Shown here: positions 7,468 through 25,712 of the stretch, one piece after another | How positions within the stretch are numbered: position 1 is the stretch's first letter | Layout: each line of letters opens with the position of its first letter | Translations under genes and position numbers: made by a program | From: Brassica napus | Lineage: Eukaryota; Streptophyta; Magnoliopsida; Brassicales; Brassicaceae | Assembly (NCBI RefSeq): GCF_020379485.1 | Contig: NC_063445.1 | Span: forward strand, 50,803,422 to 50,867,421 | Direction of reading: 5' to 3' | Length of the DNA stretch: 64,000 nucleotides | The notes under the pieces: model-generated | What the model saw: the letters and a program-made list of their open reading frames with translations, nothing else | Databases searched by the model: none | Told to the model about the DNA's origin: nothing

Positions 7468-8960
7468 CAGTTTTAGCTTTATTGCACATCTGGTCCCTAG
7501 ACATTTGAATACATTCATTTTGACCCCATAGGTTTCTGATTTGCAAATATACCATTTCAAATTGATTTCACACTTTTTAATTGTGCAGAGTATAATTTCC
7601 ATAATTATAAAACTGGTCCACAAACTTTCTCGATATTTTCAATTCGGCTCTTAACTTTGCAAATTGCTACGTTAAAAGACCAAAATCCACAACAAAATAT
7701 TTACAAGTTTGTATTCAAGGTGTACACCTATACAAACCCAAATGCAAATTTATGGTTCATATTAGGGTGTACATCTGTACAAACCCAAATGTAAATATAA
7801 GGTTCATATTAGAGTGTACATTTGTACAAACCCAAATGTAAATTTAAAATTCATATTAGGATGTACATGGTAGAACATAAAAAATATTGAAAGAAAAGAA
7901 AATATAAAAGCATTGATTTTCTTAAAAACAAAATGTGATAATAGTGGAATTTTCTGAAACAAAATTCGTACTAGACATTGCTTTAGGTGATGTAACGATT
8001 TTTAACTCTTATTTATCTTTTGTAATCACTACTATTCTTTAAGTTAATTTCGCGTACACATGTACACCTCATCTGGTGTACACTACCATATCGTATAACC
8101 TTTCCTATATGTACGCAAAACAAAACATATTTCAAAAAACATAAACTAATGTGTATGTATATAACTTGATACATTCGTAGCTTGATACAAATATATATAT
8201 ATATATATTCAAATATGGATAGCTTGATACGTTGTACACGATAAACATGCAACGTAGTACATATGTACACATATTTTTGTGTACACCACCACATAGTACA
8301 CCTCTATTGTTATCACTTTCTATTATATGTACACAAATCAAAATCAGTTCTCAATACGAAAAGTATCACTTACAAACAAAACTATCATCCCTACTCACAT
8401 GTGTTATATGTGCACATCTTCCATTTATTTTTGTAAACATGTATATTATCATGGTTGACTGTACATGGTTAATACACCGACTATACGCCAGATGCCATGC
8501 ATTAAAACATGGATTAAAATATGAGCTTAGAGAAGATTGATTGATTGTGTACATTGTATAATGTACATATAGATTAACAAGGAATCAACTTTGTTTTTGA
8601 ATATCATGTTTATCCACATGTACAAGGAATCGTACGTAGGGAAACCTATGTTCACCATCAACTTTGTTTTTGAATATCTCATTAATATCATACACAAAAA
8701 AATCAGGATTTTCCATCAACTTTGATTAATATATATTTTTAGATCAACGACTTTTCATTTTAGCTAATTTTAACCATTTACATTGCATTTCAGTGTTAAT
8801 TTTGTATCTGCATACTAATTTGAATAAAGCAGAGGCTAACTTTGCTCATCTGGAAATTTGTGTTAAACTGGAAAGTAACTGTGCAAAACTGAAAGTTTTA
8901 AGGCCAAATTGTAAATATTCTAAACTAAAGGATCAATCATGCAAATATCAGAAACTTGAT
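7465..8960. mobile_element. Second GTGTACAT-rich non-coding element
   Basis: The left end starts GGCCAGTTTTAGCTTTATTG directly beside the foldback and resembles the inverted right end of the element at 4237-5144. The interior is rich in GTGTACAT/GTACAT motifs. The right part (8790-8960) contains degenerate inverted matches to the left part, for example TTTCTGATTTGCAAAT against ATTTGCATGATTGATC read on the minus strand. Open frames in it are low-complexity Tyr/Ile/Val runs and look non-coding. The right terminus is missing or decayed. Confidence 0.4.
7719..7866 (+). repeat. 47-bp tandem repeat, about 3.2 copies
   Basis: The motif GTGTACA(C/T)..TGTACAAACCCAAATG recurs with starts at 7720, 7767 and 7814 and a fourth partial copy (ATGTACATGG) at 7861, an exact 47-bp period. 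It lies within the GTGTACAT-rich element. Confidence 0.85.
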
Positions 8961-11875: not shown

Positions 11876-11884
11876 TTGAAACAA
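11876..11884 (+). repeat. 9-bp target-site duplication, left copy
   Basis: TTGAAACAA occurs directly before the left MULE end (GGGAAAATTA...) and again at 25,704-25,712 directly after the right end. It is a perfect match, and 9 bp is the hallmark length for Mutator-family insertion. Confidence 0.9.
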
Positions 11885-12020
11885 GGGAAAATTAGAAGAT
11901 TGGGCAACTTTTAAGTTTGAATTAGAAATTTGGGCAAGCTCATGTTTTAATTAGGTTGTTGGGCAACCTAGTAGGAGAGAGAAGAAAAAGTGGACAGTTT
12001 TAACCTTTTTGCCCAACAAT
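11885..12020 (+). repeat. Left terminal inverted repeat and subterminal motifs of the MULE
   Basis: This stretch pairs with the reverse complement of about 25,600-25,703. Motifs GATTGGGCAAC, ATTTGGGCAAG and TTGTTGGGCAAC occur within 80 bp, and TTGCCCAAC follows in inverse orientation near 12,010. Such clustered motifs are plausible transposase-binding sites. Confidence 0.65.
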
Positions 12021-12478
12021 CTTGAGCTGAAATTCGTGGGACCAGACTGTCTTTTGCCCAGAAAAACTTGCCTCATGAATACCGACACACGCGCGCCGGA
12101 TGTGCGTGTAAGAGACGAATTGAATATTATATTATTTTAATTTCAGAAGGAAACATGGTATTGGGCTTCGTTTTTGGGCGATTTGACCCCAAAACTTGAA
12201 GGCCTTATATGTGATGATTTCTCGCGGGAAACAACGGCTCCAAGGTGGACGAATGGCCATTAATGACTGGTGACTTTGGAAAACATGTGTTTCACTTTAA
12301 TTTATTAATTAAAAACAGGGCAACTATTAATTATTTAATACAAAAACGTACGAACCCTATCTCTTTGTCTGTCTCCTTGTTGAGGAGTAAAAAAGGCTAC
12401 CGAACAAGGGAACTCAAGACAGCTAATTTTACACACAGAGGCATGAGCTGCATCCGATATGGTGAGGGAGGAAAGGGT

Positions 12479-15400
12479 ATGGCGGATGGTGGGTGTTATG
12501 TATCTAGCATCGAAGGTAAATCATATATAAGCCGTACACCATTGCATTTATGACATTATAGTTATTGCTGAAATCATTTATTAAAGATTTGAGGGTGTTC
12601 GGAATTCAGGTGTTTTTTTGTGCGAAACTATATTTATTGCTTCTGATTAGCACATTGAATTTTTAAATAAAATTATGTTTTATTTTTCGTAGGTGTTCAC
12701 GATTCATACATCGTTGTAATCTCTGGACGGTGGATTATGTACGACACTGGTGACTGGGATTTTAAACTTGATAGCGACCGTATGGGGAGGGCTGTCTATG
12801 CGAAGTTGATAACTTCTGTTGAAGACTTGAAGCGGGCCATTATTGAGTCATACGGTCTAGTTGGAATGTCTGTTGCCGTTGAGATGTCATATTGGCTTGG
12901 TGAACACGGATCTTGTGCTGTTGGTGAAAGAGAAGCTCCTGTTCAAATTTCCAACGAAAAGGATTTCGACTTGTTTACTTCGGCACGTAAGGTGGACAAG
13001 TACATCAACGTATTTTTCACATTCAAAGAGGAAATAGATGGGAAAATCCATTTTCTGAGGCCAATGGGGAATCTTTTGAAGTCCAAAGAAGTTGCCAGCA
13101 GCAACGAAATGCAAGTTGGGAGTACGTCTGCTGATGTGCACACCCGGAATGAAGTTAATGACGGTGAGACTGATTTGACCGAAGATGAAATAATTCTGAT
13201 GGGAGTTGCGGAAATTGAAGCAGTTTATGCCTCAAATGGTTTTGGGATGCGTGAAGTGGATGGAACTGCATGTGAAGTTCAGACTAAAGTGGAGACGACT
13301 GAAGATGCTGCGTTAGGGGAAGGTGAAGATGACGACGATGAGGATTATGATTACAATTTATGGCATGATTTTGTTGGACGAAATTGCGAATGGGACGATG
13401 ATAAGGATGAGGATGGAGGGTAGGTGGTGGTGGTCGAACGAACGTAACATATGGAGGTGTACGTGGTGAGGTGGTGACTAAAACGAGGAGTGGACGAACT
13501 AATCCTTCTTCAAACAAAGGCAGTGGTTCATCTACAAACAAACAGCGTACCGCAAACCCACCATCAACTTTTGAAGATTACGTAGATGAGGGTAGAGATT
13601 ACATAGGCTCATCTAGGATTTCGATGGAGAATATTGAAGAAGCAAGTAACAATTTAGGTGTCAAGTCAAGTGATCAAGTGGCCGACACTGAGAATCATTC
13701 AGATCCAAATCAAGAAGAGGACCCAAGTTTGGACAACATCTCTCAAATGTTGGTTCTCCAGACTCCTCCAAAGCCGTTCAACATGCATACTCGGGAAGTT
13801 GACGACAGTGATGATTTCGTTGGGCAGGTCCCTCAATGTGTTTCGTCTAGACCGACACATGATACATCTGATAGAGAAGACGAGGATGACGACTTTGTCG
13901 AACCGGTACCTATGTGTGTTTTGGTTGGTCAGACACATGAAACTCCGGTTGGAGAAGACGAGGATGACGACTTTGTCGAACCGGTACCTCAGTGTGTTTC
14001 GGGTGGTCAGACACATGAAACCCTGGTTGGAGAAAACGAGGATGATGACTTTATCGAACCGGTACCTCAGTCTCGAAGCCGTGAGGAAGACGGAAGAAGA
14101 CGTCGTGAAAAAGATAAGGCTGATGATGAATCACTCATGAAATCCGTTAGAGCCGTTGAGCTATATGGATTTGAGGATGTAGAAGCTTCGTCTAACAACG
14201 AAGCAGTTAACGATTATACCGTCGATGATATTGACTTCACTCTAGCAGATACTGATATGTACACTGGGAAGCTATTCAGTAGCAAGCAAGAATTCAAGAT
14301 CAGTTTGCACATTTATGCCTTAAAGCAGGTGTTCAGGTTCAAGTTCCACAAACATGCGTTTAACTACGTCGCAGCGAAATGCATTGATAAAAACTGCAAA
14401 TTTTATGTTATGGCTAAGCAATTGGGGGAATCTTCGACATATCAGGTGAGGAAGGCGCAACTGAAGCATGTCTGCACATCTGATGCTAAAGCGCAATATA
14501 AGAAACATGCGACGTCGAAAGTAATAGCTGCACTAATGAGATCGAAGTATGAAAGGCTCCAAGCTGGACCGCGCGCATCTGAATTACCCGAGATGCTCCG
14601 GAGTGAGTTCTTGTTTACGGCCACATATTGGAAATGTTGGAAAGCAAAAGAGTTAGCAACTGTGGCTGCACAAGGAACAGAAGAGAGCTCTTACAAGCTC
14701 CTGCCGAAATATTTTTATGTTGTAAAGTATGCAAATCCTGGGTCCATTACTAATATCAAAACTGAAAAAGATGATAAGGGTCAGACAAGGTTTAAGTACG
14801 CGTTCATGGCGCTGAAAGCTTGCATTGACGGGTGGAAGCATCTACGGAAGGTTATTGTGGTGGATGGTACTCATATGTTTGGGAAGTACAAAGGGTGTTT
14901 ACTAACTGCAAGTGGGCAAGATGCCAATTTTCAGGTATTCCCTATAGCGTTTGCTGTTGTAGACAATGAAACAAACGAGTCTTGGAGTTGGTTTTTTGAG
15001 AAGCTGACAGAGATCGTAGAAGATGGCTCCGATTTATCTATTGTGTCTGATAGAGCAAATCAAATATGTGTTGCTAAAGATAAGTGGTATCCTCTTTCAC
15101 ACCATGGGTGCTGCCTCGTACACCTACAGAGAAACGTCGACGCAAAATTCAAGAAAAGGAATCAGAAGCAAATGGTTGGCAGGGCAGCCGAGGTATTCAA
15201 GGTATCCCACTTTAAGAGACTTTACGCGGAGATCAAACTTACAGATAAGCGCTGTTGGGATTATCTTGAGAAGATCGATCCTAGGCATTGGACAAGGTCA
15301 CACTTTGAGGGCGAGCGGTACAATCTAATGAGCTCGAATATAGCTGAGTCTCTCAACAAAGCACTAGTTCCTGCGCGCGATTCCCCGATAATGGCGCTAT

Positions 15401-16053
15401 TTGAGTTCATCAGACGCATGATTAGTCGTTGGTTTGTGAGTAGACAGCGAAAGATATCGAAAATGAGTGGTGAGATCCCCCCGGCTGTTGACGAGTTGAT
15501 GGAGAACAATCTAGAAGACGCAAGAGCGTACGCTGTGATGCCTCTGTCTGCTTTTGAATTTGAGGTAACTCTAAAAACAACCGGCTTCGGGAGTTCTGTT
15601 AATTTGGAAACCAGGTCTTGCACATGTCTTGAATTCCAGAAAGTTGGAATACCATGTCGACATGCCATTGCTGCGGCTATGTTTCGGGACTTGCAGCACT
15701 CAGAGTTCGTTGCAGACGCCTATCTAAAAAAGACATGGAATGAAACAACAAAGGGTGTTACACTCCCGGTTCCAGATCCGCAAGATCTTTTCATACCTTC
15801 GGAGGTTAGTGACCTTATCATGTTACCACCAAAGATGAAGAGACCACCAGGACGTCCACCGACCAAGCGTAAACGTTCTGCAGGAGAAATACCGGTACGA
15901 CCTAATCTCATCTGACTGTAGTCATGGATATTTTCTGAATAAAGGCTGTTATGTTTTTTTCAGGAGGGGCCGAAGAAGAAGAAACTAAACACATGTAGTC
16001 GATGTCATATCTCAGGTCACAACAAAAATTCTTGTAAAGAACCGCTACAATGA
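12479..16053 (+). CDS. MULE transposase (mudrA-like), three exons, one frameshift
   Basis: Exon 1 (12479-12515) and exon 2 (from 12693) join in phase and give a PB1-like N-terminus ending in an acidic stretch. An upstream in-frame ATG lies at 12443. The stop at 13421-13423 falls in a GGT-rich linker. In the next frame the gene goes on without a break (GGGGRTNVTYGGVRGEVV) to 15894, so I read one gene with a single-base frameshift. Numbering codons from 13471, the catalytic residues are D465 (VVDGTHM), D527 (SDRAN) and E626 (NIAESLN). The SWIM finger (CTCLEF...PCRHA) is near 717. A GT-AG intron at 15895-15963 leads to exon 3 (15964-16053), which adds a CX2CX4HX4C zinc knuckle (CSRCHISGHNKNSC). 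The product would bind the element ends and catalyse cut-and-paste transposition. Acidic EDDDFVEPVP repeats occur at 13880-14070. Confidence 0.9.
13415..13432 (+). other. Probable frameshift in the transposase Gly linker
   Basis: Upstream frame: ...DEDEDGG then TAG (13421-13423). Downstream frame, open from at least 13423: GGGGRTNVTY. No plausible intron fits, since the available AG lies only about 30 bp away. An indel in the G/GGT run is the simplest reading. Confidence 0.7.
13860..14075 (+). repeat. Three tandem about 81-bp repeats within the transposase gene
   Basis: GACGAGGATGACGACTTTGT followed by CGAACCGGTACCT recurs near 13879, 13960 and 14037 (the last slightly diverged). The repeats encode the acidic module EDEDDDFVEPVP plus a CV/GQTHET segment. 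Confidence 0.85.
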
Positions 16054-16478
16054 TGGGTTATGGATGGAGGAGATTTTATGTATTGTTGACATGGAGGAGA
16101 TTTTATGTATTGTTGACAAGGGAGTTATTGTTTAGGTGTTTCCTAATAACACATCTATAATGCTATTTTGCGAACTGATGAGATATGGATTACGCAGTGC
16201 TTCTTCTTGAATTTATTAGATATGTATGGTTTTATTGTCATTCCTAAATATGGTGTTCATGTTTATGATTTGATGTAACTTGTTTATAACTTGAGGTGTA
16301 CGATATCTGTGTAGCCAATCTAGCCGTTAGAAAGACATTTAAATACAATGTAGCCGTTGTATTGTGGTCCAATAATAATATAGCCGTTACAATCTCAATC
16401 TATTTAAGTATGACTGCTTGTGTCGTCTATATTTCAGATTTTTAACGATTCTCTCTTTGCTTTATTTTTATACTAAAG
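16054..16478 (+). promoter_or_regulatory. Promoter region of the first GRF gene
   Basis: The spacer includes a 20-odd-bp direct repeat just after the transposase stop (ATGGAGGAGATTTTATGTAT at about 16060 and 16089). TAGCCGTTAC followed by TATTTAAGTA, a TATA-like box, lies near 16381-16410. The same TAGCCGTTACAATCT...CTATTTAAGTA arrangement recurs exactly 900 bp downstream in front of the second GRF gene. Confidence 0.5.
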
Positions 16479-17060
16479 ATGAGACTTGATTATAGCTATA
16501 GCCAGCCTTCCGAATCAGAGGACTATGGTGGGAATGACTCCAGCCACACAGAAGACCGTGAGGTTGAAGATCTTATTCGTCGGGACCAAGCTGAGCTAAA
16601 TTACAATTATGCTGCGACGGTTCAGTACCCTCCGCAACCCGAGGTCGAATTTGGATTCCCGCAGACATGCTACTGTGGTGGTCGGCCTAAGCTAGCAACA
16701 TCTCGCACTGTAAATGATCCAGGTAGAAGATACTACACGTGTGATTATGTTAATGATGGAGACTGTCATGTTCATAAATGGTGGGATGAGGCGGTTATGG
16801 AGGAGATGAGAGCCAGGGATACGCACACACTTCAATTGTCTGAAAAGGTAGATTATCTTACCTTTTGGAATGACTATGACCCACAACTTAACAAGTTTAA
16901 GGATCTCCAGAATGAGACTGAGCAGAAGCTGGTTAGGCTAGAGAAGATAGTGTCTGAGTTAGCTGAAAACAGAACAAGGTTAACCAATGGCTTCGAATAC
17001 TTTGTTGGTGGAATGGTTATTATATTAGTTTTACTTGGGTTGGTGATCATATTCAAGTAA
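16479..17060 (+). CDS. GRF-type zinc-finger protein with C-terminal membrane segment (At4g04775-like)
   Basis: This is a single-exon frame of 193 codons. An acidic N-terminus is followed by a GRF zinc finger at about residues 67-108: the CYCGG start, then DPGRRYYTCDY, then CHVHKWWDE. A likely coiled coil covers about 125-165 (Leu/Glu/Lys-rich) and a C-terminal hydrophobic helix of about 20 residues (YFVGGMVIILVLLGLVIIF) ends in one Lys. Crucifer genomes contain many proteins of this plan, annotated as At4g04775-like with unknown function. GRF fingers in other proteins bind single-stranded nucleic acid, but whether this holds here is not shown. The gene lies inside the MULE with its own TATA-like box, so it is probably an element-carried accessory or captured gene. 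The tail suggests membrane anchoring. Confidence 0.75.
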   Translation: MRLDYSYSQPSESEDYGGNDSSHTEDREVEDLIRRDQAELNYNYAATVQYPPQPEVEFGFPQTCYCGGRPKLATSRTVNDPGRRYYTCDYVNDGDCHVHKWWDEAVMEEMRARDTHTLQLSEKVDYLTFWNDYDPQLNKFKDLQNETEQKLVRLEKIVSELAENRTRLTNGFEYFVGGMVIILVLLGLVIIFK

Positions 17061-17278
17061 CTCTTTATTTTGTAATGTAATAAATCGGATGAGTAATGAA
17101 CTCTTGATGTGGTTTTTTGTAATGTGTCATTTTTTTATGATTCTACTAAAATTCTATGAACCAATAAACACGTTTGAAAAAACAAATGGTGAATATATCC
17201 CTCTCAATATTATATTCTACTATTTAAGTAGAAATGCTTTTGAAGCAACTTACCGTTAGAAATGCTTTTGAAGTAAAA

Positions 17279-17385
17279 TATAGCCGTTACAATCTTGCAC
17301 TATTTAAGTAAAATTCAGAACACCCAACAATCTCTCTTCACAACACTCAACAATCTCTCTTTACCACACTCACCAGTACCACAAT
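17279..17385 (+). promoter_or_regulatory. Promoter of the second GRF gene, duplicate of the first
   Basis: TAGCCGTTACAATCT then CTATTTAAGTA at 17281-17310 copies the arrangement at 16381-16410. A CAACAATCTCTCTTCACAAC-type doublet follows as 5' leader. Confidence 0.55.
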
Positions 17386-17807
17386 ATGACGGATCCTTAC
17401 TATAAAGAGATGAAGCATCACAAAAGGGAGTATGACTGGGTGAGCAATTGTGTCTATGCCAATTACAAAATTCCAACGAAGTGTATCGCGGTGGAGATAT
17501 CACCGTGGAAGCTGATGACAGAGGAAGAAACTATTACGTATGCAAAGATTTTAAGGTAATATTGGAGTTCACAATACTTAAATTTGCCTCCATTGTTAAC
17601 GGAAATGGTATTGTTTTTAGCTAACAAATCTAATATATTTTCTTGTACATCCGTCATGACTGCCTTACCGCCCTCGAGGAAGAGCTGGATTGCTTGAGAA
17701 GTCAGTATGCTGAGGAGGTGTCGTTCCGCCGTGAGCTGCAATTTGAACTTGCGCAAATGCGTGAGGAGATCAAAGAGCTTAAGCAATTAATTATGGTGGA
17801 TCGCTGA
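17386..17807 (+). pseudogene. Second GRF zinc-finger gene, frameshifted
   Basis: The ATG at 17386 opens MTDPYYKEMKHHKREYDWVS. Near 17480 the frame must shift by one base to give GGDITVEADD and then RGRNYYVCKDFK, the middle of a GRF finger. A donor GTAATATT follows at 17559. The downstream exon, about 17,650-17,807, encodes RHDCLTALEEELDCLRSQ followed by a Glu/Leu-rich coiled coil ending in IMVDR and a TGA at 17805-17807. No clean acceptor AG keeps the frame. Common plan and promoter indicate duplication from, or with, the gene at 16479, followed by decay. It lacks the C-terminal membrane helix. Confidence 0.6.
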
Positions 17808-18541
17808 TGTTAGCATTTTTCGAATCTATTATGTAATTTTCGTACTCTTCTATCAAATTTGTACTCTTTATGTTAAGGTTAAGGGATTCTAAGGTTAATT
17901 TGTACTCTGTTATGTAATTTTATATTAAGGTTAATTTGTACTCTTCTATCAAATTTTAACTGTTTATCTCATAATGGGCTTATCCATATCCAATTAAGAA
18001 GCAAACCCATTTGAATTAATGTAGTTTCATAATGTGTACAAAAGTCATCATTATACACCCTCGGTGAAGGTGTACGAAGTCATCATTATACCCCCTCGGT
18101 TACGTAAGCTTCATAACGTAGTTTGAAATTAGGGCTACCTTCTGACACGGAAAAGACATCTTCTTTATACATATTTGTACTAATTAATGTATGAACTTAA
18201 GGTATTCTCATCTCTCTCTTCGTTGGTGTACGAACACGCGTACACTAATGGTTTTAACACGAAAATAAATTTAAGTGAACTCTGTCTACGACAAGAAAGT
18301 TTCCTACTTCATTTCATATGGTCTAATCAGTCGGAGATTTAATTCTACCGAGGAGTCGCAACGATTTAATTCGCATGGTTTAAACCGAGGAGTAGTAATG
18401 GAACGCCGCGTCTGTTACCAAAAAATTAATTAATTATTTTCGTAATATATATACTACTCTGTTGTCATTTAATATCTTTTTCATCTTTCTAAACACATTC
18501 TCTGCAAACCTCTTTCTCTGCAAAACTCTTTCATTCCAAAA
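17808..18541. other. Spacer between GRF genes and gag-like gene
   Basis: No gene. It contains short direct repeats (AATTTGTACTCT three times between 17,855 and 17,945; a GTCATCATTATAC doublet near 18,042 and 18,080). A TATA-like AATATATATACTAC near 18,443 precedes a CT-rich leader of the next gene. Confidence 0.4.
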
Positions 18542-19063
18542 ATGGTGTCTGATATCAGCCAGGGCAAAATGACCGTCGCAAAATACAAACGATTCTTTTA
18601 CAGTTTGCCTATAGTCGGCGAACGCACCGAGCAGCAGTTGATCCTGTTGGCCAAGGCCGGTTTGAAGGAAGAGATCCGCGACGGTCTGGAAACTGAGGAG
18701 TTCGCCACACTCGAGGCCCTGTTCGAGGATGCGGAGGAAGTCGAGGAGGGGTTAAAGGAAACACCTCCATCCAGCCCTGGCAAACGCCGCTGCACAAGCC
18801 CCGATCACCGCAGTAGCAAACGTGCTCGCAAGGCGGAGAAAAAAGGTGACCAGGAGGATGAGGGTTATGGATACCCCGGCAAAGGAGAGACAGGGTTAAA
18901 GGACGATGAAGAAGGTGACAACTGGGAGTGGATGCAGATGGACACGGACGTGGATGACGACGCTTCCGACTGGACCGACGACACATTGGGTTCTGGGCAG
19001 TTCAGGATGGACAACTACCCAGACAGCTCCGGCACCGACTCCAGCACCTCCGACTCCGACTAG
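18542..19063 (+). CDS. Acidic protein with a gag-like N-terminal module
   Basis: An intronless frame of 173 codons is preceded by a TATA-like box and a CT-rich leader. Residues about 5-70 (QGKMTVAKYKRFFYSLP, then EEIRDGLETEEFATLEALFE and DAEEVEE) follow the layout of the Ty3/Gypsy capsid (Retrotrans_gag) helices: a TVAxYxxxF block, a GL.EEI segment and a final A..VE helix. A basic patch (KRARKAEKK) comes next, then a long Asp/Glu/Ser tail with no zinc knuckle. The G+C content is clearly higher than in neighbouring DNA. The likeness is by eye and based on motif order. If right, a retrotransposon gag fragment has become part of a DNA transposon. Function unknown. Confidence 0.55.
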   Translation: MVSDISQGKMTVAKYKRFFYSLPIVGERTEQQLILLAKAGLKEEIRDGLETEEFATLEALFEDAEEVEEGLKETPPSSPGKRRCTSPDHRSSKRARKAEKKGDQEDEGYGYPGKGETGLKDDEEGDNWEWMQMDTDVDDDASDWTDDTLGSGQFRMDNYPDSSGTDSSTSDSD

Positions 19064-19330
19064 GAACCTCCTCCTCTTTTAATATTATTGTTTTTTGTAA
19101 TTATGTTGAACTCTTTTTTTTTTAACTCTTTATTATATTTTATAATAAAATTTATGATTTCTGTTAATTATTGCTGTCTTTTTGTGCATGTTTAATATTG
19201 GTAAATTTAGGAATTGCTAATTATACGAATACTGACGGTCTACGAATACTAACGGTATTCGAATACTGACGGTATACGAATACTGACGGTATACAAATAC
19301 TGACGGTATACGAATACTGACGGTATACGA

Positions 19331-19476
19331 ATGGGCTTAATGACCATGGGTTAACCAAGACCAACCCCAAATGGTCTGACCATATTAGGCCCAATTGACA
19401 TCTCTATTCATAATTCCATTAATATTTATCTTTACTCACTTTTCATTGATTAAACGGTATACGAATACTGAAGGTA
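19331..19476 (+). repeat. About 146-bp direct repeat, copy 1
   Basis: It begins ATGGGCTTAATGACCATGGG and ends in the minisatellite unit. It is nearly identical to 19,725-19,870, with starts 394 bp apart. Confidence 0.9.
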
Positions 19477-19724
19477 TACGAGAGAAAATGGTATACAAAT
19501 ACTGAGGGTAAACGAATACTGATGGTATACGAATACTAACGGTATTCGAATACTGACGGTATACGAATACTGACGGTATACGAATACTGACGTTGTACGA
19601 ATACTGACGGTATTCGAATACTTAAGGTCTACGAATACTGACGGTATTCGAATACTTAAGGTCTACGAATAATTCCATTAATTACTCACTTTTATTACTC
19701 AACATTCATAACTAGGGATGTCAA

Positions 19725-19870
19725 ATGGGCTTAATGACCATGGGTTAACCAAGACCAACCCCAAATGGTCTGACCATATTAGGCCCAATTGACATCTCTA
19801 TTCATAATTCCATTAATATTTATCTTTACTCACTTTTCATTGATTAAACGGTATACGAATACTGAAGGTA
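19725..19870 (+). repeat. About 146-bp direct repeat, copy 2
   Basis: Second copy of the block at 19,331. Such near-identity implies recent duplication together with minisatellite units. Confidence 0.9.
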
Positions 19871-20045
19871 TACAAATACTGAAGGTATATGAGAGAAAAC
19901 ATATAACATTGACGAATACTTTAGGTCTACGAGAGAAAACAGATAACATTGACGAATACTTAAGGTATACGAATACTTAAGGTCTACGAATACTTAAGCT
20001 ATACGATAGAAAACAGATAACATCGAGGATAACATAAATAAAGTC

Positions 20046-20714
20046 CTAGAGGATGTGAGAAATGTTGCAGCATATCCAAAATAGCCTGCAGTTTTTACAA
20101 GAACCTTCAAAATCGACTGTGTAATCATGGCCATAAAGGCAGCTTGGTGACTTGATTACCTCATCATCCGGAAATTTGAAAGATGCACCATATCTGTTCA
20201 TGTATGGCGCTCCAAATGATATCAATCGCCACTCTAGATCAGCTCCCAGTCCAACTATCGCATCCGAGCGAAGGTCATAGTGATTAGCTTCGAACTGCTG
20301 AAACAGTTTACTGGCTTCCTTGTCATTGCCAATACACACGTTGAAAATGCCGACTGCTAAAGTTGATAAATCATGATTTGGGACATTTGGTTGCAATATT
20401 CTAATACATTTCTCAGGACCTACGATCAGTGCTGCATAGAGCCCTTCATAGTAGATAGCGTTTGTGTTGCCAGCTGTTACGCACTTGATGAAAAACTCCC
20501 GAAACTGACCACCAGTGCAGATTTGACATGTTGCAAAGGTGACCATTGGCTGAACATTACACTTCCTTAAGACGGAGGGTTCGTGGACAAGTGCATAACC
20601 GCGTTTCCCAGCCCGCAAAATACCACCAAGATAGTAGAATGAATCCGCTCCCACCATCTCTATTATTTTACACAAAATTTCTTCTGGAAGATTGGGGATG
20701 TTTAGAGATGCCAT
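20046..20714 (-). CDS. F-box protein (At2g35280-like), intronless, carried inside the MULE
   Basis: There are 222 codons, with the start at 20714 (MASLNIPNLPEEILCKIIEM). Residues about 6-45 form an F-box, a module that binds SKP1 in SCF ubiquitin ligases. The middle carries the FFIKCVTAGNTNAIYYEGL pattern, which I associate with the At2g35280/At1g67340-type F-box proteins (a SEL1-like repeat: a cysteine-containing helix, AGN, AxYxxG). The C-terminus is Cys-rich (CLYGHDY...CKNCRLFWICC). The frame is intact. It lies on the minus strand between the minisatellite and the Ulp1 gene, within the element's target-site duplication, so it moved with the transposon, most likely as a captured host gene. 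Substrate unknown. Confidence 0.8.
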   Translation of the reverse strand: MASLNIPNLPEEILCKIIEMVGADSFYYLGGILRAGKRGYALVHEPSVLRKCNVQPMVTFATCQICTGGQFREFFIKCVTAGNTNAIYYEGLYAALIVGPEKCIRILQPNVPNHDLSTLAVGIFNVCIGNDKEASKLFQQFEANHYDLRSDAIVGLGADLEWRLISFGAPYMNRYGASFKFPDDEVIKSPSCLYGHDYTVDFEGSCKNCRLFWICCNISHIL

Positions 20715-21201
20715 ACTATTGAGTTCTGTTGGAGATGTTTATCAGAAGCATTGAATATGTATATATAGAATAAAGAAATAAACAAAGGAGTCTTATGAGT
20801 TACTAGGAAAGTTATTGTCCCCTCCCACATTTTGTACCTAACACACTCAGAGAAATAGTTATTGCAATCAATTTTTAAATTTTACACTAATACTTATTAA
20901 ATGAAACAGTAAAAACACCAACAACTTCTGAAATTGTTTTCCTTTGAAACAAATAACTAACACATATGGTGAGATCTTGCATGGATATTATACTCTAATA
21001 ACCCTAAACCCTAAACATGCAACCCTAAACCCTAAACACTAAACCCTAAACCCTAAACCCTAAATATATAAGAAATACGATATAAAACCTTCAAAGATAA
21101 ACTGATCTGTTTGAATTATAGTGTCTGGATGAATGAAAAGATACAATAACCGTTAACAATTCGGTTTAACAAACGAAATGAAGCAGGCAGTATACACGTC
21201 T
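20715..21201. other. Spacer with interstitial telomeric repeat
   Basis: No gene. It includes the F-box gene leader and, at 20,999-21,065, CCCTAAA repeats. The 3' end of the Ulp1 gene begins at 21,202. Confidence 0.5.
20999..21065 (+). repeat. Interstitial telomeric repeat (CCCTAAA)n
   Basis: About eight units of CCCTAAA with two interruptions (ACATGCA, ACACTAA). This is the Arabidopsis-type plant telomere repeat, seen here inside a transposon. Short arrays (telo-boxes) can act as promoter elements. Confidence 0.9.
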
Positions 21202-24200
21202 TCAACCATCGTTTTGAACTTTTGCGTTTCCAATAAATTCTTCATAGGTATCCATCGCGTATTTCTGACGGAATATGTCCACCTTTTTGTCATCGATCTG
21301 CCCCATATCCTCATAGGAGTATCCCGCTGCATGCATTTCCAGAAATTTGACCGCGCATGGTCCACAGTCGCCAGACCTTTCGTTGAAGTAAATATTGTCT
21401 GGACGCACCCATGAAAATGCTTGGTCTTCTTCAGGATGACTACTATCGGAAGGAGGCGAAAACGCAGCTAAGACATGAGGCAATGCGCGTAGAAGATAAG
21501 CCATGTGCTTGTTCACCTCATTATCGGACTCATTAAGGGGAATGTTGCAGTCCAAAATCTCCACTTGTCTGCATGTCAAGTTGATCACAAGACCAACCCA
21601 ATGATCTTTTCCCCACATCATTGGGGCGTACACCCTGTCCACATCAACCAACAACACCTTCTTGTCATTCCGACGCGGCGTTTTTCCGGTGAAACTGAAA
21701 CTGACAAGCCCTCCCCAGTTGAATCCCAATTTATCTGAGGCCTTCTCGAACTCTGCGAACTTTGATATGATGCCCGCAATACTGAAGTAGTCTACAAATC
21801 TGCACCTCCGACTCAGATAATTGCGTCCATGTCGCCTTACTAGCATACTAATTAGCACAGAAATGTGCTGAAAAATATGTACAAACCATTAGAAAAATAT
21901 GTACAAACCACTTGAATAAAACGGATTAAGTTCTGATGAATTGAATACCTCGGTACTGACCCAATTTGTTGGCCGCGCCAACGACAGGAAGAACTTATTT
22001 GAGACATGGATCCCAATAACAATTTCGAATTCCCTGAAATTTGAAAACAAACCAAAAGTCAATATTAAACATTTGACAGTCCAAGAAATTTATACAGTAT
22101 ATCCAAACAACTTACTGTGCCGGTTTCTCGCGGAGAATTGACTGAAACTCTTGAAACTGCGCTTTCTCCAAGTCTGCTAAGGGCGTATATTTGGGTTTCT
22201 TGCAGCTTTGGAAAAGCTTCTTCAATCTCTTGTCTGGGGTGTACACTCCTCCAATCTTTGTTGAACGTCTCGGAATACGCTTCGTCTGGAGGTCATCTTT
22301 TTTGGTTGAGCTTATTGGAATACATTTCCCTTCTAGCTCTGCTTTTTTTAATGACCTAGTCAGATATCGACTCAGCTTCGAATTCCCAACGTCTGGTGTG
22401 CGAGATTCAGTCATCGGATCATCCTCTGGCGGTGTCTTGTAATCTTCAGAATTTGTCGGTGACGCTTTACCACCTTGTTCCTCCGGCGGAAGGACGTAAG
22501 ATTCAGGATGAGACCAAACGGTAAGCATCCTACAAGTGTTCTCCTGTGGATCTTTATAGACATTGTCACTCCGTGTCCCCTTTTCAACCTCTTCTGCTAA
22601 CAAATTTAGCCCTGATATTGGAGACTCATCTCCCCCCTCGCCCTGACAACGTTCAGATATAGCTCATTCAAATACTTCGATTCAGATGTAGTTTAACATT
22701 AAAATACCTAATCAACATAATCTGTACACCTGGCAAAATTATCTGAACACTTGACTAACTAATATGAATACCTCTGATCTCTCACCTGAAAACTATCAAA
22801 CAGATCAGTATACCTGACTACTTAAGCTGAACACCTCTTAAATTAACCTGAATACCAGACCAAACAAATGAGTATTCCTGTAAACCTCATAAATTAACAT
22901 GAATACCTGAACTATTAACCAGAATACCAGACCAAACAAATCAGTATTCCTGTACACCTCAAAAATTAACCTGAATACCTTAACTAAATAACCTGAATAC
23001 CTGACCAAACAAATCAGTATTCCTGTACACCTCACTAACTAAAACGAACAACTGATAATCTACGCTGAATACCTGGCCAAACCAAGCTGAACAGCAAAAC
23101 ATAATATATCTAGAGCCTATAAATTCATTGTTATAATCTATTTACCTCCAACGGTTCCGGGAGAGTCGGTTTTGCTGGCTTTGATACAATTTCTGGTCCA
23201 ATCGGCGTTGAAACATCGACTTCTGGAATGTTTGCCGACTTCGAGAAAGAGGGGCCTTCGCCCGCCATTGAATCTACCTACACGTTGAATTTTCCTCAAA
23301 AAAGTTAGACCGGGATTCAGGCATTGTTTATCATTAAAAATTGTAGGAGCAGTTTGATTACCTTTTCCCAGAAGCGAGCATTTGGCGTACGGCCATCACA
23401 ATGATTATCATGCATTCTCATCGTCTCATCGTCGCTAAACCCATCGCCGTTGTTCTTCTTGTGTTTCTTACTATCAGACCAAAATATTTCAGCTTCATCA
23501 TTACCATCACCACTGAACGGACGTCGCTTCTTTGGACCTTCCATGCCGGTAGGGTCAGCGTGACTGTTGTCTCTGTTTGTTTTACCGGCTGCTGTGTTTT
23601 GCGGAACCGTGAACGAGCCTCCCCTATCATGATGCAACCAGTCAAAAATCTCGTTCCGCAATTTACCCAACTGGGTTTTCAGTTCAACTCGTATCCACTC
23701 TTTCAGCTCTTGCTCCTTATCTGATAAGTTTCCTGGTTCAGCCTGTTTACATATCCCACGACGAGGTCGAATAGGACGCTGAGGCGCCTGAGTCGAACTT
23801 CCAGGTTCATCACATGCTTTCCCAAACCGCCTAGACGGCTTTTGACACTTCTTTTTGACACCAACACCTTCAGCCTTTTCGGCTGGCTTCAGAGGTGGAA
23901 GGGATGAATCACCTCCTCTAAAGTCTGTTGCTTTGAACTCGTGCCCTTCCCGCATTCGACGAACTAAGTTATCTATTTGGGGATCGATTACTTCTTTCTT
24001 CCACTTTGGATCCCCACCTTCATCTGGGATTGAATACGTAACAATAACCTCAAACAAAGAACACAAACATTCATAAGTACACAAAGTTTGAGCGTCTTAA
24101 CTTCTGTTTTGCAAATAAGATAGACAACAACATTGTACCTCAGTTTGGGTTTCCACCAGAAGTATGTCTTCAAAATTCAGAAGTGCATTTGTTGAGTCGC

Positions 24201-25366
24201 ATCCTTCTGGTTCTTGCAAGAAAGAAGTGGTTTTATTAGGTTCGGGAATTTTCTCAAGCAATGAGGGGATAGCTTTAAAAGCAAAAAGTTGCAGCGCCAG
24301 AGGGAACCCATAACACGCTGTTGACTGCTGTTTCAAACGAAGGCGCATGACCGAAAGGGATTTATCCATTTTAGAAGGATCAGAAGGTTGAGGTGGTGTC
24401 AATCTAGACAGAGTGCTGACAAATGCCTCTCTCCCCCATGGATATTGAAGAAATGATCTGGTGTCTTTCAGCATCTCGACGTAAGCAGGCGTCACACGAA
24501 GAAGTTTGTGACCACAAACCAGGAGCCCATCTACAAGCGCAATGAGAGCTAGTGGCAACCGCTTCCACTCAGGAAGACTAGGCTGTTCAAGCATACGAAG
24601 AACATCTGGTACAGTCACGTCTTCATCTTCAGTTTCAAACAACTCTTTCCACATACGTCCAGGTGTGGCATCGATAGATTCTGACCCGTTTCCAACTTTT
24701 TCCCTTTCAGGCTCGCATTTCAGCCCCGTGATGTCTCCGAACTCACGCAGAGAAAAGCGTAGTGGCTTGTCTGCAAACAAGAACCAGAGCTCATATAGGC
24801 GCATCGTAACCAGCTGACGGCTGAGGAGAGAATGTACAAGTTTCGCAGAGTTTGAGCAGCGCGATACAGGTAAGTGGAACAGAGCTCCAAACTGACTTCC
24901 TAGCAGACAATTCATTTCAGGGGGCCTCTTAGCAACTTCACTAACGATCCAATGATACTCGCCTTTGAATAGATGTTCAGTCGAGGTTTGCCAGGATAGC
25001 AATTACGTGCGAACAGTCTTTCCGGGAAAGTCGGCGTGGTGACAATAAATTCCGGCTCGGTGGATGCAGCTTCGTCTTGTTCAGTGGATGCAGCTTCTTC
25101 TTGGTCGGTGGATGCAGGTTCCTCTAGTTCGGACTCCGTGCTAGATACTGAAATACAATGACCAAATCCAGACATTTACCCAACGCTTTATTTTTAAAAA
25201 CTTTTTCCAAAGAATTTCACAGCGAAGCTTAGCGAAAGGAGATACCTGCATAACGAGACGCAGTTTTGCCTAGTCGGGGAATTTTCTTGGGATTTGCTTC
25301 TCTATCACTGGCGCATTGACTACGAGTCACCCTCCTCGAGGGCGTTACGCTGGAGGGGGATACCAT
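21202..25366 (-). CDS. DUF1985 plus Ulp1-like protease, seven exons, one frameshift
   Basis: Exons by phase-consistent GT-AG sites: 25366-25246, 25147-24139, 24048-23362, 23277-23151, 22642-22116, 22033-21949, 21867-21202. Exon 1 is short and begins MVSPSSVTPSRRVTRS. Exon 2 holds an acidic repeat (EEAASTEQDEAASTEPE), then the DUF1985 domain (RLFARNCYPGKPRLNIYSK, FHLPVSRCSNSAKLVHSLL, FSLREFGDITGLKC). Exons 3-6 code for basic/acidic low-complexity linkers. Exon 7 has the C48 protease fold: KDHWVGLVI (His), EILDC (Asp), SGDCGPCAVKFLE (Cys). Asn stands six residues before the Cys, where classical Ulp1 has Gln. Exon 2 needs one extra base in the G5 run at 24920-24924 to stay in frame. Family knowledge: C48 enzymes process or remove SUMO-like modifiers; MULE-borne copies are called Kaonashi-type, and their role is unclear. 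Confidence 0.88.
22800..23050 (-). repeat. 72-73-bp tandem repeat in intron 4 of the DUF1985/Ulp1 gene
   Basis: ACCAAACAAATCAGTATTCC followed by TGTACACCTC recurs with GTATTCC at 22872, 22944 and 23017. Between them are further GAATACC/GAATACCTGA motifs. The CAGTATTC core is shared with the 17-bp minisatellite of the same element. Confidence 0.85.
24920..24924 (-). other. Apparent 1-base deletion in a G run of exon 2
   Basis: The frame from exon 1 reads ...LVKLLRGPLK then TGA. The neighbouring frame continues ...PPEMNCLLGSQFGALFHLP, the expected continuation of DUF1985. One added base in the GGGGG run (CCCCC on the coding strand) restores continuity. Confidence 0.7.
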
Positions 25367-25703
25367 GCCGATCTGGGTACAGTCGAGAGTGGTTCTTATG
25401 TGGGATTCTTCTTATGTTTGGTTCTCAATTGCAGCTGTTTAGATGTGGTTCTGGTATATTTTAATATAAGGGATGTTTTGGTTTTTCTAATTTCCTTCTT
25501 TTTAATTCTTTTATTAGGTCTTTTTTTATTTTTAAATAAAAAATCAAGAGATGGCACGGTCGTAATATCAAGAACCACGCGCGCCCTCTGTCGACATTTC
25601 ACAAGTCTGGAAAATGCGATTCGTCCAATTTGCTAATTTAAACTTGAGATCGCCCAACTCCCTAATATCAAATTTGCAATTTGTCCAATTTGCCAATTTT
25701 TCC

Positions 25704-25712
25704 TTGAAACAA
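25704..25712 (+). repeat. 9-bp target-site duplication, right copy
   Basis: TTGAAACAA, identical to 11,876-11,884, directly follows the right MULE end. Confidence 0.9.

What the first reader, a model, noticed from the sequence alone, without database searches (positions are those of the whole stretch)
19224..23050. Candidate VANC-like anti-silencing system: DUF1985 protein gene plus shared AGTATTC motif arrays in the same element
The element has two separate non-coding tandem arrays: a 17-bp minisatellite (23 AATACT copies, CAGTATTCG on the minus strand) and a 72-73-bp repeat in an intron (ATCAGTATTCC). They share the core CAGTATTC though their units are otherwise different. From memory, Arabidopsis VANDAL21 encodes VANC, which removes silencing by binding YAGTATTAY motifs clustered in non-coding parts of its own element; I also recall that VANC-type proteins carry DUF1985, which this element encodes fused to an Ulp1 protease. 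Convergence of the motif on AGTATT in both arrays suggests a target-protein pair, here with a protease domain attached.
Basis: partly seen in the sequence, partly recalled or inferred. Interest (0 to 1): 0.9.

Follow-up and report, generated by a model that had tools for sequence, protein, structure and literature searches.

The report
Ulp1-bearing VANC transposon in Brassica napus
An apparently recently active plant jumping gene carries its own likely anti-silencing DNA-binding protein together with arrays of a short DNA word that probably serve as that protein's landing sites; this is a new Brassica member of a system already known from Arabidopsis, with a landing-site word different from the one first proposed.

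The parts
11885..25703 (.). Complete VANDAL/MULE-type element; TSD TTGAAACAA at 11876-11884 and 25704-25712
   Evidence: boundaries from 10 other copies; 9-bp TSD in 11 of 11 copies (10 exact, 1 with one mismatch), read by eye
13414..15915 (+). MULE transposase (VANA counterpart): MULE, SWIM, DBD_Tnp_Mut; an upstream exon (about 12731-13420) and a short last exon (about 15964-16055) are inferred by eye
   Evidence: Pfam; exons inferred
16482..17060 (+). GRF zinc-ribbon protein with a C-terminal hydrophobic stretch (by eye)
   Evidence: PF06839 E 3e-6
18542..19063 (+). Acidic ORF of unknown function, 173 aa
   Evidence: no Pfam match
19222..20010 (-). 17-bp array: 17 GGTRTWC (plus strand), 20 AGTATTC (minus strand), 12 dyads GGTRTWC-GAATACT
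20046..20711 (-). ORF of 221 aa, sub-threshold plant TPR-like match
   Evidence: PF23310 E 0.011, below cut-off
21202..25366 (-). VANC-Ulp1 gene, 7 exons inferred from splice signals and frame (25366-25246, 25147-24139, 24048-23362, 23277-23146, 22642-22116, 22033-21949, 21867-21202); this copy has a one-base deletion ahead of DUF1985
   Evidence: with this exon model 3 of 11 copies read open to the last codon (one of them lacks the start codon)
24097..25002 (-). Reading frame holding DUF1985 (DNA-binding fold of VANC21)
21202..21888 (-). Reading frame holding Peptidase_C48 (Ulp1)
   Evidence: E 2e-40
22643..23145 (-). VANC intron with 12 GGTRTWC (15 with near variants) on the sense strand, about 21 bp apart; contains the 72-73-bp repeat
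18069..18231 (+). Dispersed GGTGTACGA/GGTATTC sites upstream of the acidic ORF (18069, 18201, 18225)
21000..21064 (-). Telomere-like TTTAGGG repeat just beyond the VANC-Ulp1 stop

Best explanation
The feature is an Ulp1-bearing VANC system (KIU/VANDAL type) in a young Brassica napus Mutator-like transposon. Shown: one element carries transposase, a DUF1985-Ulp1 gene with the VANC21 DNA-binding fold, and GGTRTWC sites clustered in one orientation within each of two non-coding stretches (the 17-bp array between the genes and the VANC intron); two sister elements with 50-61% identical DUF1985 carry GGTGTAC, a more distant one does not. Inferred: the family's intact VANC protein binds these sites in trans on the copies of the family and clears silencing marks from the non-coding regions, so that transposase and VANC are expressed. 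AGTATTC is the inverted half of paired sites. The window's own VANC gene is frameshifted, so this copy would depend on intact sisters.
Against: No binding, methylation or expression data. Motif columns in the intron are not significantly more conserved than the rest (8 of 105 vs 40 of 360 variable, p 0.36). The 17-bp array is out of helical phase (mean cosine -0.45), and so are the intron sites of sister B96 (18-19 bp apart). GGTRTWC is also somewhat enriched in coding DNA (8 vs 2.83; 3 of 200 shuffles). Only three related elements were read. Genome-wide, of 33 GGTGTAC-triplet clusters in the listed part only 2 lie within 12 kb of a DUF1985 place listed (by eye), though both lists are truncated. 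Tandem repetition inflates word counts, and the GGTRTWC and dyad patterns were drawn up after looking at the arrays.
Confidence: 0.75

Rival explanations
1. Neutral minisatellites: the 17-bp and 72-bp arrays are products of slippage that happen to share a short word, with no binding function.
For: Tandem arrays expand easily; intron motif columns are not significantly more conserved; after collapsing the intron repeat, the overlap with frequent array words is reached by 6, 43 and 74 of 2,000 shuffles for 6-, 7- and 8-mers.
Against: GGTRTWC is enriched outside both arrays (10 vs 1.24) and GGTGTAC leads the word lists of two sister elements, made without using it; the dyad recurs in both arrays and in none of the other sets counted; spacing follows the DNA helix in the intron.
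Confidence: 0.15
2. The sites serve the transposase or a host transcription factor rather than VANC; for example a promoter array, or internal transposase sites.
For: The transposase gene is in the same element; the 17-bp array lies between genes.
Against: Arrays are internal, not terminal; one lies inside an intron of the VANC gene, as in VANDAL21 (PMC5735166); the motif is shared by two nearer DUF1985 relatives and missing in a distant one, but transposase co-variation was not tested.
Confidence: 0.1
3. The binder is VANC but recognises AGTATTC itself, as the first reader proposed (a VANC21-like AGTATT core). This overlaps the best explanation except for the word.
For: 20 and 3 copies in the two arrays; the core resembles VANC21's YAGTATTAY.
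Against: 0 in other non-coding DNA and 0 in three related elements.
Confidence: 0.12

Closest known systems
Ulp1-bearing VANC genes of non-TIR MULEs (KIU/Kaonashi; review PMC13317346, passages seen, names VANC genes with Ulp1 as KIU). That VANC1 of VANDAL1 belongs here is recalled from Sasaki et al. 2022, which is not held
   Same: MULE with a VANC gene that carries an Ulp1 domain; motifs in non-coding DNA of the same family
   Different: Brassica family with its own candidate motif; the VANC1 motif could not be compared here
VANDAL21 / VANC21 (Arabidopsis; PMC5735166 and PDB 9lnj, 9lnk)
   Same: DUF1985 DNA-binding fold; tandem-repeat target motifs in the VANC intron and other non-coding stretches, same orientation within an array
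   Different: Target YAGTATTAY is absent here; the word Ulp1 does not occur in the main text of PMC5735166
VANDAL6 / VANC6 (targets AGTTGTCC, AGTTGTAC; PMC5735166)
   Same: AGGTGTAC differs from AGTTGTAC by one base (my comparison; chance not ruled out)
   Different: VANC6 word AGTTGTMC is not enriched in this element

Membership tests
VANDAL-type MULE | MULE transposase gene in the element | tested here: met
VANDAL-type MULE | 9-bp target-site duplication | tested here: met
   11 of 11 copies by eye, one with a mismatch
VANDAL-type MULE | degenerate terminal inverted repeats | tested here: inconclusive
   ends GGGAAAATT... and ...AATTTTTCC agree over about 9 bases by eye; no formal test
VANC anti-silencing proteins | DUF1985 with the VANC21 DNA-binding fold | tested here: met
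[quoted passage not shown]
   for GGTRTWC; that it is the target is not shown
VANC anti-silencing proteins | protein binds the motif | not testable with these tools
   needs EMSA, DAP-seq or ChIP-seq
VANC anti-silencing proteins | expression removes DNA methylation of the family | not testable with these tools
   needs transgenic lines and bisulfite sequencing
KIU (Ulp1-VANC) | Ulp1/C48 domain in the same gene | tested here: met
   one open frame through both domains in 3 of 11 copies under this inferred exon model; no transcript was seen
KIU (Ulp1-VANC) | active protease | not tested
   His, Asp and Cys of the triad seem present by eye only
VANDAL21 family | YAGTATTAY enriched | tested here: not met
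   0 in the element and in 10 copies
VANDAL6 family | AGTTGTMC enriched | tested here: not met
   1 in the element, in coding DNA (0.46 expected there)

The most novel reading that the evidence does not exclude
Target specificity among these Brassica Ulp1-VANC families is set by geometry rather than by the core word: sister elements share GGTGTAC, while this family alone among those read pairs it head-to-head (GGTRTWC-n0-2-GAATACT, in a 17-bp array) and sets it at two-helical-turn steps in the VANC intron, so that a dimer or cooperative DUF1985 array reads pairing and spacing and discriminates its own copies from close relatives.
Probability: 0.25. Interest if true: 0.6.

Novelty: new member of a known kind. 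Interest (0 to 1): 0.45.

Why it matters
It extends transposon-encoded anti-silencing to a multi-copy, young family in a crop genome and gives a concrete, testable target word. Two sister elements with the same word and one without it offer a natural series for asking how a VANC protein and its target change together, now that a VANC21-DNA structure exists. A further VANC-motif pair would also be a possible tool for sequence-specific removal of methylation.

Tried and rejected
YAGTATTAY and AGTTGTMC as direct targets were rejected. Conservation of motif columns in the intron was tested on 14 introns and was not significant. Helical phase was tested in the 17-bp array and not found; in sister B96 the intron sites are 18-19 bp apart, also not in phase. 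A single-sequence AF2 model was useless (pLDDT 36.7), so the 75-sequence model was used. C48 alone gave no PDB sequence match at E 0.001. A 3-kb stretch between two GGTGTAC clusters (L036) held no long reading frame; its matches to the window and the copies, in the rows shown, are mostly telomere-like repeats. A second distant-family locus (L037, 5 kb) had 2 GGTRTWC and no AGTATTC; its DUF1985 exon lies outside that stretch and the C48 query did not match it. A first count under-counted GGTRTWC because one strand's pattern was written wrongly; one search replaces that part. In some searches the stretch 7600-8700 was left out of the flank; one search counts it apart, one search does not count it. 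The coding mask used contains exons inferred by eye. The DNA search with the intron did not complete; the genome-wide AGTATTC-triplet search never got an answer. Sasaki et al. 2022 (EMBO J) is not held; its statements on ten systems, domain gain and loss and helical periodicity are recalled only. Searches for VANC/VANDAL with Brassica or periodicity (listings only) showed no study of this family by title; this is not proof that none is in print.

Full report
Where it is. The window lies in a 997-Mb plant genome. A protein record of Brassica napus (P0004) sits on a contig of 64,956,572 bases, the exact length of contig C485 of this genome, so the species is almost certainly B. napus (inference). 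The arrays belong to one element, 11885-25703, flanked by the 9-bp duplication TTGAAACAA. Ten other copies fetched from the same genome (8.8-13.9 kb) align at about 95-99% identity per aligned main block, and all have 9-bp duplications, one with a mismatch (by eye). Mean pairwise difference is mostly about 1% or less in the genes, 2.4-3.5% at the element's ends, and 6-7% with many gaps in the 17-bp array. A DUF1985 search lists 44 rows at 74% identity or more before the first row at 52%; some later rows are fragments of the same family (counts there are lower bounds).

What it encodes. Plus strand: a MULE/SWIM transposase, a GRF zinc-ribbon protein and an acidic ORF. Minus strand: a gene with seven inferred exons that holds DUF1985 (E 8e-36) and Peptidase_C48/Ulp1 (E 2e-40). 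In the window this gene has a one-base deletion ahead of DUF1985 that the other 10 copies lack. With the same exon model 3 of 11 copies read open to the last codon, one of these without its start codon; the other 8 are interrupted in that model, partly perhaps by alignment gaps.

The motif. De novo counting puts GTATTC first among 6-mers in both arrays. Against dinucleotide shuffles: AGTATTC 20 in the array (0.34 expected), 3 in the intron (0.12), 0 in 3,928 bp of other non-coding DNA (0.71), 1 in coding (0.75). GGTRTWC 17 (0.64), 12 (0.19), 10 (1.24) and 8 (2.83) in the same four sets. In 49 kb of flank it occurs 9 times (14.2 expected); the flank leaves out 7600-8700, which has 7 (0.50). GGTRTWC runs on one strand within each array: plus in the 17-bp array, minus (VANC sense) in the intron. 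Paired in opposite directions, GGTRTWC-n0-3-GAATACT occurs 12 times in the array and 2 times in the intron, and 0 times in the element's other non-coding and coding DNA, the flank (without 7600-8700) and the three related loci. AGTATTC is therefore best read as half of this dyad. The pattern was drawn up after looking at the arrays.

Sister elements. B243 (50%) has GGTGTAC as its top 7-mer (17 vs 0.8). In B96 (61% over the best block) it is second to a simple ATATATA repeat (12 vs 0.7), and GGTGTACA is the top 8-mer. GGTRTWC counts are 22 (3.8 expected) and 17 (3.3). C159 (39%) has none (3.2 expected); its own leading words, of the GTGGACA kind, are weaker. None of the three has AGTATTC. The motif thus follows DUF1985 relatedness, but the sample is small.

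Spacing. In the VANC intron the 12 strict sites lie 42, 30, 22, 21, 30, 21, 51, 21, 21, 42, 42 bp apart; 8 of the 9 other young copies with a recovered intron show the same series. With near variants, chosen by eye, there are 15 sites in the window and 18 in an older copy (S294); 10 of 14 and 12 of 17 spacings are 20-22 bp. The phase to 10.5 bp is stronger than in any of 20,000 random placements, though the 72-73-bp duplication means the sites are not independent. The 17-bp array shows no such phase, nor do the B96 intron sites.

Mechanism. By analogy to VANDAL21, where VANC21 binds clustered motifs in introns and between genes and induces loss of methylation (PMC5735166, parts 1-3 of 6), and where RdDM and VANC act on the same non-coding regions (PMC10398659, part 1 of 6 and passages), I infer that intact VANC-Ulp1 protein from sister copies binds GGTRTWC sites in trans and clears silencing marks, allowing transposase and VANC expression. 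Binding, demethylation and any role of Ulp1 are untested.

Known or new. Ulp1-carrying VANC genes (KIU) that act on KIU-carrying elements are described (PMC13317346, passages), so the protease fusion is not new. A VANC21 crystal structure was announced as unpublished work in a meeting report (PMC8756742, passage) and is now in the PDB. New here, as far as the calls show, are the Brassica family's candidate motif and dyad and the helical-step intron array. I rate it a new member of a known kind.

Limits. The genome-wide AGTATTC test did not complete. Of 33 GGTGTAC-triplet clusters in the visible part (184 matches in all against 30 for the reversed pattern), 2 lie within 12 kb of a DUF1985 place (clusters and distances counted by eye); the DUF1985 list scored 131 of 2,496 candidates, so this neither supports nor excludes a wider link.

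Noticed in passing
window 7600-8700: Separate cluster of GGTGTAC (7 vs 0.15 expected) and 47-bp tandem repeats about 3.2 kb outside the element; possibly a relic or non-autonomous element using the same word.
   Followed up: partly
genome C262:41098263-41102653, C262:45288649-45288801, C243:16621910-16623708, C243:17584382-17586207: GGTGTAC arrays, many with 12-14-bp periods, with no DUF1985 place nearby. L036, the stretch between the two clusters at C262:41.10M, has GTGTACA words mixed with degenerate TTTAGGG repeats and no long reading frame.
   Followed up: partly
window 21000-21064: Telomere-like AACCCTA repeat just beyond the VANC-Ulp1 stop; most of the matches of L036 to the window in the rows shown fall on it.
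   Followed up: no
window 20046-20711 and loci L031, L032: Extra ORF with a weak plant TPR-like match lies between array and VANC; two older copies carry further coding-looking sequence next to the array (by eye).
   Followed up: partly
window 13837-14071: 78-bp repeat inside the transposase reading frame; gaps there suggest that its copy number differs between element copies.
   Followed up: no
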